From assembly GCA_029933125.1 (NCBI GenBank), contig JAOZOU010000015.1:1-30740 (forward strand): a stretch of DNA of 30,740 bases. Direction: 5' to 3'. This document shows, in pieces, positions 1 through 30,740 of this stretch (its first letter is position 1; every line of letters begins with the position of its first letter). A model generated the notes under the pieces. It ran no database searches. It was not told the origin of the DNA and saw only the letters and a program-made list of their open reading frames with translations. The position numbers were made by a program, and so were the translations under genes. This stretch comes from a bacterium (GTDB lineage Bacteria > Arandabacterota > Arandabacteria > Arandabacterales > Arandabacteraceae).

Positions 1-55
1 GCCGTATGAGTTCCCGATCGAGGGTGCTGACTTCTCCGTTCAGTATGCCTTGGCG
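1..55. repeat. Terminal direct repeat (left copy), assembly overlap of a circular genome
   Basis: These 55 bases are identical to the last 55 bases of the window (30686-30740). The capsid reading frame continues in phase across the join, so the two ends are the same locus read twice. A 55-base exact overlap is typical of a k-mer assembler closing a circle. It need not be a biological terminal repeat. The non-redundant circle is 30,685 bp. Confidence 0.95.
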
Positions 56-15212: not shown

Positions 15213-15430
15213 TGGGTGGAAACAAAGAGCGCAAACTCACAGGCGTCTATATCCGAATCCAAGACGAGGACGGCAACTGGGTCAGTAAAGATATCTCAGA
15301 CTGTACCGAGACCCAGCAACGGCTATTCCTTGATAAGCAGTGGAAGACTTGGGTAATCGAGTTCTGTCTCATCATGCTACGGGTTCTACGAGAGCTTGGT
15401 GAGACGCTGGACTTGGAAAGGACGGATTGA
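15212..15430 (+). CDS. Small hypothetical protein
   Basis: A 72-residue protein. The ATG at 15212 overlaps the previous stop (TTGATG); a TTG at 15209 is an alternative. The N-terminal half is charged and beta-like ('GVYIRIQDEDGNWVSKDI'), and the C-terminal half is an amphipathic helix ('WKTWVIEFCLIMLRVLRELGETLDL') that could lie on a membrane. No family was recognised. It is co-transcribed with the surrounding small genes and overlaps the next start by one base. Confidence 0.6.
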   Translation: MGGNKERKLTGVYIRIQDEDGNWVSKDISDCTETQQRLFLDKQWKTWVIEFCLIMLRVLRELGETLDLERTD

Positions 15431-15600
15431 TGCGTTTATTGGACAAGGTGTGTATTAGCCTGACGCTGGGCATCTCAGTTATTGCATATTTCAGCTATTT
15501 TCTGGGATATGACGACCGGGCGTTGTATCTCTCTGTGATCACTGTCCTATGGGCAATTGCTATGATCGGTATGTCCATAGCGGAGAGCCTTGAACGATAG
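15430..15600 (+). CDS. Small two-segment membrane protein
   Basis: A 56-residue ORF beginning at ATG 15430, which overlaps the previous stop (TGATG), and ending with TAG at 15598-15600. The translation begins MRLLDKVCISLTLGISVIAY, giving a first membrane segment. A second follows after a short loop ('ALYLSVITVLWAIAMIGMSIA'), and the end is charged (ESLER). The N-terminus is short and basic. The size and topology resemble class II holins or antiholins. Its place beside other membrane genes makes a lysis-timing role plausible but unproven. Confidence 0.6.
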   Translation: MRLLDKVCISLTLGISVIAYFSYFLGYDDRALYLSVITVLWAIAMIGMSIAESLER

Positions 15601-15638
15601 TGGGGCTGGAGGATTCGAGTTGGGAGGAGGACGGATTA

Positions 15639-15890
15639 ATGCGAGTGGTCATTAATGGCGAGGAGTTTATCCCCGTATCGGAGGCTGCGCGCATTCTGGG
15701 TGTCTCACCCGCAACGATTCGGCGATGGAGCCGTAAGACAGGGCTTTGCCTGCCGTGCATGATCGATCAAATGAACGGCTACCGGTGGTTCAAACGATCA
15801 GATGTCGAGGCGCTCAAGGATCGGTGGATCAGACGTCCGACCGTCGAGGCAGAAATCAGGGCATCCAAGCAGGATCTCAAGGCGGACTAG
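15639..15890 (+). CDS. MerR-type/excisionase-like HTH DNA-binding protein
   Basis: An 83-residue protein starting at ATG 15639, with GGGAGGAGG (15622-15630) 8 nt upstream. A GTG at 15600 would add 13 acidic residues with no ribosome-binding site. The motif 'FIPVSEAARILGVSPATIRRWSRKTGL' (residues 9-35) is the MerR/excisionase winged helix, followed by 'YRWFKRSDVEALKDRW'. It may act as a recombination directionality factor or as a late regulator. No integrase was found in the genome, so a regulator is more likely. It lies immediately before the tmRNA-like RNA. Confidence 0.7.
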   Translation: MRVVINGEEFIPVSEAARILGVSPATIRRWSRKTGLCLPCMIDQMNGYRWFKRSDVEALKDRWIRRPTVEAEIRASKQDLKAD

Positions 15891-15891
15891 C

Positions 15892-16030
15892 GCGGCTGAA
15901 GGATTCGACGGGCATGGCGTGAAGCTCACTCGCTCGGTTTGGGATTATGCCGGGCGCAGAATGGTACCGTTCATCGGTCGCCGGAGCTTCTGACCTTGCC
16001 CCGACTCGGGTTCGATTCCCGACAGCTCCA
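15892..16030 (+). ncRNA. tmRNA-like tRNA-like domain RNA (truncated, no tag frame seen)
   Basis: Both conserved tmRNA ends occur in order. The 5' end has GGATTCGACGGG (15901-15912), an exact match to the E. coli tmRNA 5' region. The 3' end has T-stem TCGGG (16006-16010), T-loop TTCGATT and CCCGA (16018-16022), then CAGCTCC and discriminator A (16023-16030). The 7-bp acceptor pairs 15892-15898 with 16023-16029 and keeps the G3-U70 pair that specifies alanine, with one C-C mismatch at position 2. A P2-like helix pairs 15911-15927 with 15984-16000 (13 pairs, 4 mismatches). The 56-nt loop is far too short for the tmRNA pseudoknots. No CCA is encoded. The only stop-closed frame in the loop ends 'RRSF', not ALAA-like. 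Confidence 0.72.
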
Positions 16031-16049
16031 CAAAATCAAATAGACTATT

Positions 16050-16123
16050 GGGGACGCCCAGTTCATCCCGAGCGATGGGAGTCGCTCGCCAACGCAAGCC
16101 TATGGGCTGCGTTAGGCGTCCTC
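16050..16123 (+). ncRNA. Structured RNA, three-way junction
   Basis: Starting 20 nt after the tmRNA-like domain, three helices fit together. A closing 9-bp helix joins 16050-16058 with 16115-16123 (one G-U). A 7-bp hairpin joins 16069-16075 with 16082-16088. A hairpin of AACGC + AGCC with GGCT + GCGTT (16091-16113) has one bulged A and a TATG loop. All three pair exactly. It may be part of one transcript with the tmRNA-like domain, or an independent element. No protein-coding gene was recognised in 15891-16188. Confidence 0.6.
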
Positions 16124-16188
16124 AGCGCTTCACAAGCAAATAGGGTTGTTTTTGTGGACACAACGTCAGGGGGTTGTTAGAGATCGCC

Positions 16189-16458
16189 ATGAACAACGCT
16201 AGGCGCAATGGGGAGTATTCACCCTGGCGACCCCATCATTTCTACTGGGGTCTGATTCTGTGCATCATAGGCTTCTGGCTACTGTTTCCGCTACCGAAGC
16301 TCGGTTTGCTGGTCTGGCTACCGTTGGAGATCGTTGGGATACTTTTGATAGTGGACGACCTCTACCAACACTTCAGGCAGAAGTCAGAGCCGGAGTACTT
16401 GAGTCCCATCCATAGGTGGTGGGACCAGTTTATTGAATGGCTGAGGAGAAGAACATGA
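16189..16458 (+). CDS. Small two-segment membrane protein
   Basis: An 89-residue protein, ATG at 16189. A TTG at 16174 is an alternative start, but the GGGGG before it leaves almost no spacing. After 'GEYSPWRPHHFYWG', two hydrophobic segments follow ('LILCIIGFWLLFPLPKLGLLVWLPLEIVGILLIV'), then a charged, Trp-rich tail ('HRWWDQFIEWLRRRT'). The His-His-Phe-Tyr-Trp entry to the first membrane segment is distinctive. No function is assigned. It overlaps the next gene by 4 nt. Confidence 0.6.
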   Translation: MNNARRNGEYSPWRPHHFYWGLILCIIGFWLLFPLPKLGLLVWLPLEIVGILLIVDDLYQHFRQKSEPEYLSPIHRWWDQFIEWLRRRT

Positions 16459-16667: not shown

Positions 16668-17564
16668 TTAAGCGCTTTCCTTGGGACCATCTTGTTTACA
16701 GGGTCGCTGCTCAAGCCAAGACTTTATTATGAAAATGTTGATCACCGCTGCAAGATTCACTGTGAATTCTGCAAGCGAACGCGGCATCTCTAGTATGTCC
16801 TTGCCTTGCCCGTGCCCACTACCCGGTCGATTGCGCACTTGCGCAACCCCCAAAGCAAGCTTTTCGAAGTGAGTGTGGAACTCGCCATGATACTTAGGAA
16901 TAATGCCCGACTTGATGAGGCGGTGCAATAGCTCCGTGAATGTTAGACGGTCTCGTGTTCCAAGGGCAGCCTTCATGGTGCTTTCGACCGATTTCAAAGC
17001 GCTTGCAGCTGCATCCTTGGGTCGTTCGGACATCAATAGCGAAACGGCTGTCTGAAATTCTTCCAATGGACCGCTGAAACGCGCTTCCTTCATAAGGATT
17101 TGGGCTTTGCTAATGATTCCCCTATGTACGTATTCCGAGTCGACCCGCAGAATCATTCCGTTGACTATCCGCCATGGCGACTGATGAACCTCAAATGCCT
17201 GGTTGATTTCTCGTTCGCACCGAATAGCCCGCTCCTCAGGAACACAAGCCATCCACGCTTCGAGGGCATCGAAGACATTGGCGGGTTTTGCCCTATCGAT
17301 AAAAGTTGCGAAATTCACGGGCACAAGGTTGCATTCGGAATCGTGCGCAACTAGCCAATCCTCGCCGTAGAAGTCTTTCAGCTCCCGCTCCGCCTCTAGA
17401 AACGTCGTGTTTCGCGGACCCTCATGAGTGGCGTCCGGCGGTTCATAGATTGAATGCCTGTCCAAGATCCGCCGAATGGATACGCGAAGCTGCCTTGGCA
17501 GCAGCACTTTCATTTTGCCGCTTTCGAGCACGTCAGCGTGCCTTCTGCTGAAATAGAGTTGCAT
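16668..17564 (-). CDS. AbiJ/Abi-C-like HEPN abortive-infection protein
   Basis: A 298-residue minus-strand protein with a good ribosome-binding site (GGAG 6-7 nt before the ATG at 17564). The N-terminus 'MQLYFSRRHADVL', then 'LLPRQLRVSIRRIL', matches the AbiJ N-terminal domain pattern. The C-terminal 100 residues match the Abi-C/HEPN type: 'ASALKSVESTMKAAL', 'TFTELLHRLIKSG', and the signature 'VRNRPGSGHGQG' (R244, N245 and H251, fitting the HEPN R-x(4-6)-H motif), followed by 'FTVNLAAVINIFII'. It likely cleaves RNA when another phage infects, protecting the prophage-bearing cell. It is the last gene of the minus-strand operon. AbiJ-like proteins are chiefly bacterial, so a phage copy is notable. 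Confidence 0.72.
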   Translation of the reverse strand: MQLYFSRRHADVLESGKMKVLLPRQLRVSIRRILDRHSIYEPPDATHEGPRNTTFLEAERELKDFYGEDWLVAHDSECNLVPVNFATFIDRAKPANVFDALEAWMACVPEERAIRCEREINQAFEVHQSPWRIVNGMILRVDSEYVHRGIISKAQILMKEARFSGPLEEFQTAVSLLMSERPKDAAASALKSVESTMKAALGTRDRLTFTELLHRLIKSGIIPKYHGEFHTHFEKLALGVAQVRNRPGSGHGQGKDILEMPRSLAEFTVNLAAVINIFIIKSWLEQRPCKQDGPKESA

Positions 17565-18609: not shown

Positions 18610-18882
18610 ATGAATGGAAACCTAAAAAATGGGGAACTAAAGAGACGGTTCGGAGAGGAGATTTTCCGCCTCCGGACCGCCTTGCATATTAAGCAGCAGG
18701 ATTTTGCAAAGATCCTCGGTATCTCACCGGTGCTTATGAATCATGTTGAGCGAGGGCGGCGAGCGCTAAAGATATTGGAGCTTGTCCGTTTGCGCGAAAC
18801 CTATGGGGTAAGTATCGATCACATGATCGATAGCATCGTTGAGGATATCGGCGCATGCGCTGACAAAAAAGGAGGGGGTTAA
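18610..18882 (+). CDS. Cro/CI-type HTH repressor
   Basis: A 90-residue protein. ATG 18610 is preferred over ATG 18601 because transcription from the promoter just upstream should start near 18607. The helix-turn-helix reads 'LRTALHIKQQDFAKILGISPVLMNHVERGRRAL', the pattern of XRE-family regulators, and the C-terminal half is helical ('ELVRLRETYGVSIDHMIDSIVEDIGA'). It lacks a peptidase/autocleavage domain, so induction would not be RecA-driven. It probably binds the repeats in the divergent region and sets lysis versus maintenance. The ribosome-binding site of the next gene lies inside its end. Confidence 0.8.
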   Translation: MNGNLKNGELKRRFGEEIFRLRTALHIKQQDFAKILGISPVLMNHVERGRRALKILELVRLRETYGVSIDHMIDSIVEDIGACADKKGGG

Positions 18883-19087: not shown

Positions 19088-19219
19088 TAAGCGGCAATGG
19101 TGGTAGCGCGTTGGCGATTTTGTGAAGCAATGTCGCATAATAAACAGATACGCAACTTGCACTTTTTTGCTTTCCCTGGCTCCTCGTTGTTCTCTAATTC
19201 TCAGCAAATTGACCCGGCG

Positions 19220-19712
19220 CACCGTGAGCTGGCAAAAGAATGGGCTTTTGCTGTAAACCCGTCCCGAGACCACGGCGCCGGGGATCTAAACGATAAATTA
19301 GCGGTTGCTTGCCACTCGCTCGCCTTGTTCGCCTTCCTCACCACTTCCTTGAACCCCTGCGGCAATGTGCGTCGAGACCAGAGGCAGCAGCCGCTATTCG
19401 ATTCCAATTTGACTGGCAGCCTCAACCCAGGGACGGGGAGTTTTGCTCACGGAGGAGCGCCTGGCTGCCTCGGAAAGGGGGGATGCGTAGCGGATAGCCA
19501 AGCCGATCCATCAGCAAAACCGAATAGCATCACCTGCGGTCAGCGCGGCAGGCCTATCTGCGTGCGACGCACAGGCAGGCAGACCGCAGTTGGGGCTTGC
19601 GTAGCGACCAACGGAGGAAGCCTTCACTGCTCCCACTCCAACTATCGTCAGGACTTGAGTGGCGCGCAGGCCCCAACGTAAAAAATCCCGACGGTCGGTG
19701 ACGAGACCGACC
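19220..19712 (+). ncRNA. Large structured RNA candidate in a 640-nt gene-free region
   Basis: Between 19088 and 19727 no protein gene was credible on either strand: a 194-residue + strand frame (19097-19681) has a biased, non-protein-like composition and no clear ribosome-binding site. The stretch contains well-formed helices. They are GCAAAAG 19232-19238 with 19245-19251, a 14-bp helix 19299-19313 with 19383-19396 (one bulge, one G-U), GGCAGCC 19415-19421 with 19463-19469, CTGCGGTC 19534-19541 with 19582-19589, a 13-bp helix 19589-19601 with 19665-19677 (one G-U) enclosing CCACTC/GAGTGG, and GGTCGGT 19693-19699 with 19706-19712. A modest promoter (TTGGCG 19111, CATAAT 19136) lies upstream. 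The last hairpin ends just before AGGAGG of the next gene. The exact ends are uncertain. Confidence 0.5.
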
Positions 19713-25142: not shown

Positions 25143-26316
25143 GCAAGCGGAGTTCCACAAAGCGGTGGATAGATGCCGCTTCACAGCTTTCATTGGTGGG
25201 ATCGGTTCAGGCAAGACGAAAGCGGGGATCGCGGAGCTTCTGCGTAGGGGATTGATGATGCCAGGTGGTTTTGGGATTGTGGGAGCTCCTACCTATCCCA
25301 TGCTCCGGGATGCGACTGAACGCACATTCTGGGAGATGTGTCCCGAGGAGCTGGTTGTTGACCATAACAAGACCGAGCATTGGGTTCGGCTCATCAATGG
25401 CTTCGAGATTATCTTCCGCTCCACCGATAACCCGGACCGCCTGAGGGGGCCGAATGTCTCGCTCGTCTATCTTGATGAGGCAAGCCTTATGCCCAAGCAG
25501 GCCTGGCTCATCTCCATCGGTAGGCTCAGGGAGCGAAAGGATTGGCGGTTTTGGCTCACCACCACGCCTAAGGGTCTTAACTGGGTTTACGAAGTCTTCG
25601 GCAAAGAGGATAAGGACAGGGCCACCATCCGCGTGGCAACGCATGAAAATCCTTACCTCAATCGCGATACGATAGCTGCCCTCGAAGAGCAATACGTAGG
25701 CGACTTCCGCCGGCAGGAGCTTGAAGGCGAATTCGTAGCCTTCGAAGGCTTGGTCTATCCGATGTTTCGAGAAGACCTGCACGTTACCTCCGGCGAGGAG
25801 CAATACAAATACCATGTGGGCGGGATCGATTGGGGTTATACTAACCCGACGGTAGTCCTTATTGCCGGGGTTGATAGTGATGACAGCATTCATGTCCATT
25901 ACGAGTTCTATCGCTCACACGTGACCCTCGATGCCCTGATCCCGGAGCTGAGGCAGGTCACGGCGAAGTTCGGCGTTGAGCGCTACTGGTGTGATCCCAG
26001 CGAGCCGGATCATATCAGGGCATTGCAGCAGGCAGGCATACCCGCAGATGCGGCAGATAACGCAATCGTCCCCGGCATCATGGACGTAACGAGCATGCTG
26101 GAACCGCTGAATGATAAACCGCAACTGACGCTATCACCCGCATGTGCCAACACAATTGCAGAACTCAAGCAATACCAGTGGATGCGTGACAGGAACGGGC
26201 AGTTTAGCAAAGAGATGCCGGTTAAGGTAAATGATCATGGCTGTGATGCGCTGCGCTACATGGTCAGGAGCTGGCGCCAAGGACGTAATCGAGCGCCAAC
26301 AATCGGGGTGTTGTAA
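25069..26316 (+). CDS. terL: Terminase large subunit
   Basis: A 415-residue protein in the GTG 25069 reading. The ATPase domain has Walker A GGIGSGKT (43-50), Walker B VYLDEA (133-138) and the TTTPKG motif (164-169). The nuclease domain has D254 in 'GGIDWGYTNP' and a late acidic pair in 'DHGCDALRYMV'. It powers DNA translocation and cuts the concatemer. The true start may be later: AAGGAG (25108-25113) lies 6 nt before ATC 25120 (protein beginning near 'QYKPHLKQAEFH'), where family members start. The stop is directly followed by the portal ATG. Confidence 0.93.
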   Translation: MSMWWCSLVATITKEITIQYKPHLKQAEFHKAVDRCRFTAFIGGIGSGKTKAGIAELLRRGLMMPGGFGIVGAPTYPMLRDATERTFWEMCPEELVVDHNKTEHWVRLINGFEIIFRSTDNPDRLRGPNVSLVYLDEASLMPKQAWLISIGRLRERKDWRFWLTTTPKGLNWVYEVFGKEDKDRATIRVATHENPYLNRDTIAALEEQYVGDFRRQELEGEFVAFEGLVYPMFREDLHVTSGEEQYKYHVGGIDWGYTNPTVVLIAGVDSDDSIHVHYEFYRSHVTLDALIPELRQVTAKFGVERYWCDPSEPDHIRALQQAGIPADAADNAIVPGIMDVTSMLEPLNDKPQLTLSPACANTIAELKQYQWMRDRNGQFSKEMPVKVNDHGCDALRYMVRSWRQGRNRAPTIGVL

Positions 26317-30116: not shown

Positions 30117-30740
30117 ATGGCAGAGGTAAATCTTAAGGAGATTGAGGAAAAGCTCGACGAGGTCGGCAGAACCGTAGTCTCTGTCAACGATTATGTTGAG
30201 CAGACGGCGGTCAAGGTTGAAAAGCTTGAAGAGACCGTCAGGAAGGTTGAAGCCCTGGCAAAACGGGCTAACGAGATCAGCCGTCGGCAGACGCTGTCCG
30301 GGATTATCAACCGTTACGGTCCAACCGACGGCAAGGATCTGCTCACCCGAGCGCTGACTGATCCCACACCACACGCTCGGTTCCTCAAGGGCGAAGCTCT
30401 CAACAATGACGATACTTTGGTCTTGCGCTTCCAAGAGGCGAACGATCGGCTGCTTTTGGCTGCTATGGCGTTGGGGCTTGAGCCTAAGCCAGAGGTCTTT
30501 GCACGCAGATTGCCCAAGCTCTGGCACGACTTCCAGACGCTTGCAAGCGATCTTGCTCGTGCAATGGACACGGGCACTGAGCTCGCCGACTGGCTTATGA
30601 CCCAGATGTCGCCGAGGTTGCTCAATCTCGTTCGGCTGGAGCTTAAGGTTGCGGCTCTGTTCGAAGAGGTCAATATGCCTCGGTCGCCGTATGAGTTCCC
30701 GATCGAGGGTGCTGACTTCTCCGTTCAGTATGCCTTGGCG
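30117..30740 (+). CDS. Major capsid protein, N-terminal part (continues at position 56)
   Basis: The 5' part of the capsid gene, 208 codons up to the end of the window, with ATG 30117 preceded by GGGTG. Residues 5-55 form a coiled coil ('EIEEKLDEVGRTVVSVNDYVEQTAVKVEKLEETVRKVEALAKR'), the delta/scaffold region removed by the prohead protease. The fold-typical 'LWHDFQTLASDLARAMDTG' and 'LFEEVNMPRSPYEFPIEGADF' follow. The frame joins position 56 with no gap, and the full protein is 471 residues, longer than HK97 gp5 (about 385). The extra length is partly the coiled coil and a mid-protein insertion. Confidence 0.92.
   Translation, partial: MAEVNLKEIEEKLDEVGRTVVSVNDYVEQTAVKVEKLEETVRKVEALAKRANEISRRQTLSGIINRYGPTDGKDLLTRALTDPTPHARFLKGEALNNDDTLVLRFQEANDRLLLAAMALGLEPKPEVFARRLPKLWHDFQTLASDLARAMDTGTELADWLMTQMSPRLLNLVRLELKVAALFEEVNMPRSPYEFPIEGADFSVQYALA
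30686..30740. repeat. Terminal direct repeat (right copy)
   Basis: Identical to bases 1-55. It marks the overlap of a circular or circularly permuted molecule. The capsid frame continues unbroken into position 56. Confidence 0.95.

What the first reader, a model, noticed from the sequence alone, without database searches (positions are those of the whole stretch)
15892..16030. Phage-encoded minimal tmRNA: the tRNA-like domain without tag frame or pseudoknots
Both tmRNA termini are kept in order: GGATTCGACGGG at the 5' side and TCGGG-TTCGATT-CCCGA with CAGCTCC and A at the 3' side. They close an acceptor stem with the alanine-identity G3-U70 pair (C-C at position 2). A P2-like helix pairs 15911-15927 with 15984-16000. 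Everything between the P2 strands is 56 nt, while known tmRNAs run to several hundred nucleotides, so the pseudoknots and most of the message part are absent. Full-length phage tmRNAs are known, but I know of no tRNA-like domain alone in a phage. A domain of this kind would still bind AlaRS, EF-Tu and SmpB. It could act as a decoy that blocks host trans-translation, or as an attachment site to the host ssrA gene.
Basis: partly seen in the sequence, partly recalled or inferred. Interest (0 to 1): 0.9.

Follow-up and report, generated by a model that had tools for sequence, protein, structure and literature searches.

The report
Phage miniature tmRNA without a tag
A phage genome carries a stripped-down copy of the bacterial ribosome-rescue RNA (tmRNA), only its tRNA-like part, which probably jams the host's rescue system; one such phage RNA was already published, but a search of viral contigs shows that dozens of phages carry similar ones.

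Summary
Window 15892-16033 matches the Rfam tmRNA model end to end (46.8 bits, E 2.6e-17; cut-off 47), with everything between the P2 strands reduced to 56 nt. Its unconstrained minimum-energy fold is acceptor stem, P2 and T-arm. It is the weakest member of its class: C-C at acceptor pair 2-71, CGAC for GGAC, no CCA. The phage genome is complete and has no recognised integrase. Two CRISPR spacers in the MAG tie it to that host, which has its own full-length tmRNA and SmpB.

It is not unique. The tagless 'tRNA-like domain only' form was published for mycobacteriophage DS6A, and a similar molecule inhibits tmRNA in E. coli. New here: pattern scans of IMG/VR found 86 distinct ~80-nt TLD-only tmRNAs plus 11 compact 116-140-nt ones, in varied phage gene contexts, with strong covariation and G3-U70 in 82 of 82 fully paired acceptors. 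ARAGORN misses all those tested; Rfam scores them 50-81 bits.

Most likely it binds SmpB (perhaps also AlaRS, EF-Tu and stalled ribosomes) and blocks host trans-translation. Function is inferred. For the window copy, decay of a captured tmRNA cannot be excluded. The attP reading is weak.

The parts
15892..16033 (+). mini-tmRNA (tRNA-like domain plus P2, no message domain)
   Evidence: RF00023 46.8 bits E 2.6e-17, full model span; MFE fold = TLD+P2
15892..15898 (+). acceptor stem 5' strand GCGGCTG (C2-C71 mismatch, G3-U70)
   Evidence: sequence; fold
15901..15909 (+). tmRNA D-loop motif GGATTCGAC
   Evidence: class consensus
15910..15927 (+). P2 helix 5' strand
   Evidence: MFE pairing with 15984-16002; duplex -25.6 kcal/mol against background mean -8.9
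15928..15983 (+). 56-nt insert in place of the tag frame and pseudoknots; predicted two hairpins
   Evidence: no similarity to the host message domain beyond short runs
15984..16002 (+). P2 helix 3' strand
16006..16022 (+). T-arm TCGGG-TTCGATT-CCCGA
16023..16033 (+). acceptor 3' strand CAGCTCC, discriminator A, then CAA (CCA not encoded)
15600..15890 (+). small MerR/excisionase-like HTH gene ending 1 nt before the RNA; likely co-transcribed (inference)
   Evidence: PF00376 E 4.6e-8, phrog_66 E 2.3e-9; no sigma-70-like promoter found in 15400-16300

Best explanation
Window 15892-16033 is a phage-encoded miniature tmRNA: the tRNA-like domain and P2 helix of a tmRNA whose message domain has been lost. 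It most likely works as a molecular decoy. Transcribed with the upstream HTH gene and trimmed like a tRNA, it would bind SmpB (and, if charged, EF-Tu), compete with host tmRNA for SmpB or for stalled ribosomes, and so lower host trans-translation and proteolytic tagging during infection. Shown here: tmRNA homology, the TLD+P2 fold, the lack of a message domain, a host with its own tmRNA and SmpB, and a conserved covarying class of TLD-only tmRNAs in many phages. Inferred: transcription, processing, SmpB binding and inhibition. (Identity as a tmRNA-derived TLD+P2 element: about 0.9; the decoy function on top of that gives the stated confidence.)
For: RF00023 match with E 2.6e-17 and TLD+P2 as unconstrained MFE. 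P2 far stronger than at comparable chance sites. Conserved class: 94 distinct pattern hits, 82 with 7/7 acceptor pairs although the pattern did not include the acceptor (shuffled partners: mean 15, max 26 in 500 shuffles), and G3-U70 in 82/82. In A1, 94.8% of cells pair (shuffled 69.3%), covariation 0.594 (shuffled 0.118; slid partners at most 0.135), and P2 pairs change on both sides in 28-38 of 63 sequences. No excess of tag-like frames in the short minis: 33 of 86, shuffled mean 36. All 25 whole viral contigs tested carry exactly one over-cutoff tmRNA hit, the mini, and none has SmpB. Host link: two CRISPR spacers; the host has a full tmRNA and SmpB. Literature: a DS6A-like TLD molecule inhibits tmRNA, perhaps by titrating SmpB (PMC4131195; PMC11915505); the TLD crystal construct that binds SmpB is 5' 25 nt + UUCG + 3' 34 nt (PMC3985003), very like the natural 80-nt phage RNAs.
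Against: The window copy departs from the class: C2-C71 mismatch (G2-C71 in 62/63 of A1), CGAC instead of GGAC, 2 nt between acceptor and D-loop, no encoded CCA, score just under the Rfam cut-off and only 32 bits with R1. No close relative was found, so there is no direct evidence of selection on this copy. No expression or binding data. Some phages might profit from trans-translation rather than from its loss (own knowledge).
Confidence: 0.55

Rival explanations
1. Tagless ribosome rescue: the charged mini-tmRNA with SmpB enters stalled ribosomes, takes over the nascent chain and lets ribosome and peptide be freed without a degradation tag, so that phage proteins are not marked for proteolysis. 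It would replace, not block, host tmRNA.
For: G3-U70, T-arm and D-loop are kept across the class, which a pure SmpB sink might not need. Jakobid mitochondrial tmRNAs lack tag and pseudoknots and persist together with nucleus-encoded SmpB (PMC11915505; PMC3985003).
Against: No known way to end translation without a resume frame. A DS6A-like molecule inhibits tmRNA whether or not it can be charged (PMC4131195). The window copy has a C-C pair in the acceptor and no CCA.
Confidence: 0.2
2. The window copy is a decaying remnant of a bacterial tmRNA captured by the phage, its message domain deleted, with no present function.
For: C2-C71 mismatch, CGAC, no CCA, sub-threshold Rfam score, R1 score no better than tRNA-Ala, no conserved relatives.
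Against: P2 is still -25.6 kcal/mol, T-stem and G3-U70 are intact and the MFE is the native fold. A compact phage genome keeps a 283-nt intergenic gap that holds it. TLD-only tmRNAs are a conserved class in phages.
Confidence: 0.15
3. A minimal tmRNA that still encodes a tag inside P2, without pseudoknots.
For: A frame AGRRMVPFIGRRSF* ends in the 3' strand of P2. Four of the longer viral relatives share a frame ANT[A/V]G.. with a stop at the same place (L250, L340, L475: ANTAGLTE*; L476: ANTVGMFK*).
Against: The window frame lacks the usual Ala-Asn start and hydrophobic end; a 93-nt stretch often holds such a frame by chance; the 80-nt class shows no excess of tag-like frames.
Confidence: 0.06
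4. The segment is a phage attachment site (attP) for integration into a tmRNA or tRNA gene.
For: The 3' half resembles the 3' end of ssrA, a common attB; the neighbouring gene matches an excisionase/regulator profile.
Against: No integrase among the proteins scanned. The best match in the spacer-linked host is 84% over 32 nt, while such sites usually share 30-45 bp (PMC10865867). attP does not explain the 5' half and P2.
Confidence: 0.04

Closest known systems
TLD-only tmRNA of mycobacteriophage DS6A (tmRNA Website 'TLD only'; PMC4131195, PMC11915505)
   Same: Phage-encoded, little more than the tRNA-like domain, no tag frame; a similar molecule inhibits tmRNA in E. coli
   Different: DS6A's sequence is not in the collections held, so no direct alignment. 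The window RNA is 142 nt with a long P2 and a 56-nt structured insert; phage and host are from an unrelated, poorly sampled phylum
Jakobid mitochondrial and Mallomonadaceae plastid tmRNAs without tag frame
   Same: Loss of message domain and pseudoknots, TLD kept
   Different: Organellar, not viral; the mitochondrial ones persist with SmpB as the cell's own factor
Full-length tmRNA (ssrA) of bacteria and phages, Rfam RF00023
   Same: Acceptor with G3-U70, D-loop GGATTCGAC, P2, T-arm
   Different: No tag reading frame recognisable, no pseudoknots; 142 nt against 352 nt in this host
Integrative elements and prophages in ssrA (CP4-57, cluster K1 mycobacteriophages)
   Same: Phage carrying ssrA-like DNA
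   Different: Those carry a 3' fragment matching the host gene next to an integrase; here both ends and P2 are present and no integrase was found

Membership tests
tmRNA (RF00023) | covariance-model score at or above the curated cut-off (47) | tested here: not met
   46.8 bits, E 2.6e-17; short class members score 51.6-79.5 and the minis of 25 whole viral contigs 50.4-81.1
tmRNA (RF00023) | tag reading frame and pseudoknots | tested here: not met
   Only 56 nt between the P2 strands, predicted two hairpins; no recognisable tag
TLD-only phage tmRNA (DS6A kind) | acceptor stem with G3-U70 | tested here: met
   6 of 7 pairs incl. G3-U70; pair 2-71 is C-C
TLD-only phage tmRNA (DS6A kind) | tmRNA D-loop GGNTTCGAC followed by P2 | tested here: met
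   15901-15909, P2 duplex -25.6 kcal/mol
TLD-only phage tmRNA (DS6A kind) | fits the model of the 80-nt phage minis (R1) better than tRNAs do | tested here: not met
   32 bits on the 3' half, tRNA-Ala 30-32; ten other longer relatives 51.6-62.6
TLD-only phage tmRNA (DS6A kind) | lies in a phage genome | tested here: met
   terminase, portal, protease, tape measure, endolysin; 55-bp terminal repeat of a complete contig
TLD-only phage tmRNA (DS6A kind) | inhibits host trans-translation / binds SmpB | not testable with these tools
   needs RNA and protein
attP in ssrA | long identity to a host ssrA or tRNA 3' end | tested here: not met
   best 84% over 32 nt in the spacer-linked host
attP in ssrA | integrase gene in the phage | tested here: not met
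   none in 34 proteins scanned against PHROGs or Pfam; some small ORFs not scanned

The most novel reading that the evidence does not exclude
TLD-only tmRNAs are a widespread class of phage RNA: many unrelated phages carry an 80-140-nt mimic of the tRNA-like half of tmRNA that shuts down or reroutes the host's ribosome rescue, an RNA-based takeover of translation quality control, overlooked because tmRNA gene finders require a tag frame.
Probability: 0.45. Interest if true: 0.85.

Novelty: new member of a known kind. Interest (0 to 1): 0.62.

Why it matters
Trans-translation is nearly universal in bacteria and is a drug target. One phage was known to carry a TLD-only tmRNA. If many phages carry one, inhibiting or rerouting ribosome rescue is a common phage strategy, and the class supplies a large set of natural SmpB ligands. 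It can be tested at once by expressing minis in laboratory E. coli with a tagging reporter or in a strain that depends on trans-translation. It also exposes a blind spot: ARAGORN misses these genes, although the Rfam model finds most of them.

Tried and rejected
The first two viral-contig patterns used a gap of 60-90 nt and could not have matched the window (true gap 94-95), so searches are uninformative; with the right gap found none. blastn against isolate phages finds only TLD 3' halves, of tRNA-Ala or tmRNA genes, and nothing for the locus with flanks. Neighbour-protein searches gave no related phage. DS6A's record is not held. Lacusarx phage tmRNA, suspected because its paper cites Mao 2009, is annotated at full length (394 bp). 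R1 as a test for the window failed to single it out. Considered and rejected: simple internal deletion of the present host's ssrA, because only the TLD core is similar; misbinning, because CRISPR spacers of the MAG match the phage.

Full report
What is there. The window is contig C175 of a 3.23-Mb MAG. Its first and last 55 bases are identical, as in a complete circularly assembled genome, and it encodes terminase, portal, prohead protease, head and neck proteins, tape measure, endolysin, a Cas4-type exonuclease and a primase/helicase: a tailed phage of about 30.7 kb.

The RNA. cmscan aligns it to the whole tmRNA model (RF00023, 46.8 bits, E 2.6e-17, cut-off 47), with acceptor stem, D-loop, P2 and T-arm in standard, non-permuted order and only 56 nt inside P2. 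The unconstrained minimum-energy fold gives this structure. ARAGORN finds nothing. The match is not a T-arm artefact: tRNA-Ala genes of the same MAG reach 37 bits, and among about 150 other sites with GGATTCGAC 50-130 nt before a T-arm none has a P2 as strong, or both P2 and acceptor. Weak points are the C-C at pair 2-71, CGAC for GGAC, 2 nt between acceptor and D-loop, and CAA for CCA. A model of the short phage minis scores this copy only like tRNA-Ala.

Host. A CRISPR array of the MAG (C171, 28-nt repeat, about 61-bp units) has one spacer matching phage 18746-18775 without mismatch (31 of 33 over the whole spacer, read) and one matching 25810-25841 at 29 of 32. So this MAG's population meets this phage. 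The MAG has a full tmRNA (352 nt, tag ANTTLAMAA) and SmpB. Host and phage RNAs share only the conserved TLD core, so the phage RNA is not a fresh deletion of the present host gene.

Relatives. No close relative of the window RNA was found. A degenerate pattern scan of IMG/VR turned up a clear longer relative, L024 (125 nt, 70.6 bits, perfect 7-bp acceptor with G3-U70, long perfect P2, CCA encoded). Of 94 distinct hits, 82 have a fully paired acceptor although the acceptor was not in the pattern (shuffled partners: mean 15, maximum 26), and all 82 have G1-C72, G2-C71 and G3-U70 while pairs 4-6 take five types each. A broader filter over all loci, which does require G3-U70, gives 86 distinct short sequences (about 69-83 nt, in 86 loci) and 11 longer ones (116-140 nt; L308 in that list is a tRNA cluster and is not counted; L250, L340 and L475 are close variants of one another). 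Rfam scores the nine short ones found over its cut-off at 51.6-79.5 bits (L437 in that call gave only a tRNA), and ARAGORN calls none of the minis in the 14 loci tested.

Selection on structure. On 63 sequences below 90% identity, P2 pairs change on both sides in 28-38 sequences, the covariation score is 0.594 against 0.118 for shuffles and at most 0.135 for slid partners. Caveats: the inner T-stem pairs and the first P2 pair were fixed by the search pattern, and the filter behind this alignment required at least 6 acceptor pairs with G3-U70; one search is the filter-free test of the acceptor. Tag-like frames are no more frequent than in shuffled loops (33 of 86, shuffled mean 36). In 25 viral contigs searched whole the mini is the only tmRNA hit over the cut-off and SmpB is absent; these records may be fragments. 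Neighbours vary: capsid and protease genes (L354, L380), primase (L352, L391), DnaB helicase (L365), transglycosylase (L423), tRNA genes (L353, L376). In 149 genomes of the order of a Rhodobacter MAG nothing scores at 1e-6 with R1; that search had no positive control.

Function. TLD is the part of tmRNA that binds SmpB, AlaRS and EF-Tu; the third acceptor pair is G-U in all tmRNAs, and the D-arm contacts SmpB (PMC3985003). The crystal construct of TLD with SmpB is 25 + 4 + 34 nt, very like the natural phage minis. [quoted passage not shown] PMC11915505; the original Mao 2009 paper was not available to me). Hence the decoy model. The conserved charging signal leaves room for tagless rescue, as discussed for jakobid mitochondria.

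Verdict. Observation confirmed; interpretation partly supported; the kind is known from one phage; this copy is a divergent, perhaps weakened, member; the new point is that TLD-only tmRNAs are common in environmental phages.

Noticed in passing
window 1-55 and 30686-30740: Identical 55-bp ends: complete, circularly assembled phage genome.
   Followed up: yes
window 18746-18775 and 25810-25841: Protospacers matched by two spacers of a CRISPR array in the same MAG (L515 1050-1985, repeat ATCGTCCCCACGCGTGTGGGGGTGACCC), linking phage and host.
   Followed up: yes
window 16048-16125: Very stable three-way-junction fold (-42 kcal/mol, z -3.9) directly downstream of the mini-tmRNA; no Rfam family; could be a second structured RNA or a 3' stabiliser.
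   Followed up: partly
window 16668-17564 (-): Protein with AbiJ_NTD4 and Abi_C domains: a phage-borne abortive-infection-like gene close to the mini-tmRNA.
   Followed up: no
window 19542-19589: Matches a dispersed 27-48-bp host sequence with many copies in the MAG (C42, C162, C27, C164) and in a genome of the same genus.
   Followed up: no
window 19101-19146: 93% match over 46 bp to host C120:301585-301630, unexplained.
   Followed up: no
L250 1623-1761, L340 11475-11613 (-), L475 2095-2233 (-), L476 10687-10823 (-): Compact 137-139-nt viral tmRNAs that may keep an 8-codon tag frame (ANTAGLTE*, ANTVGMFK*) without the usual pseudoknots.
   Followed up: partly
L469, L471, L481 (mini-tmRNA interiors): Three viral tmRNAs of about 120-126 nt share an inner helix around a motif like AAGACNUGAAA, resembling the 3' end of the normal message domain.
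   Followed up: no
L458 5916-6012 (-), L416 5224-5296 (+): Pistol ribozymes in two viral contigs that also carry mini-tmRNAs.
   Followed up: no
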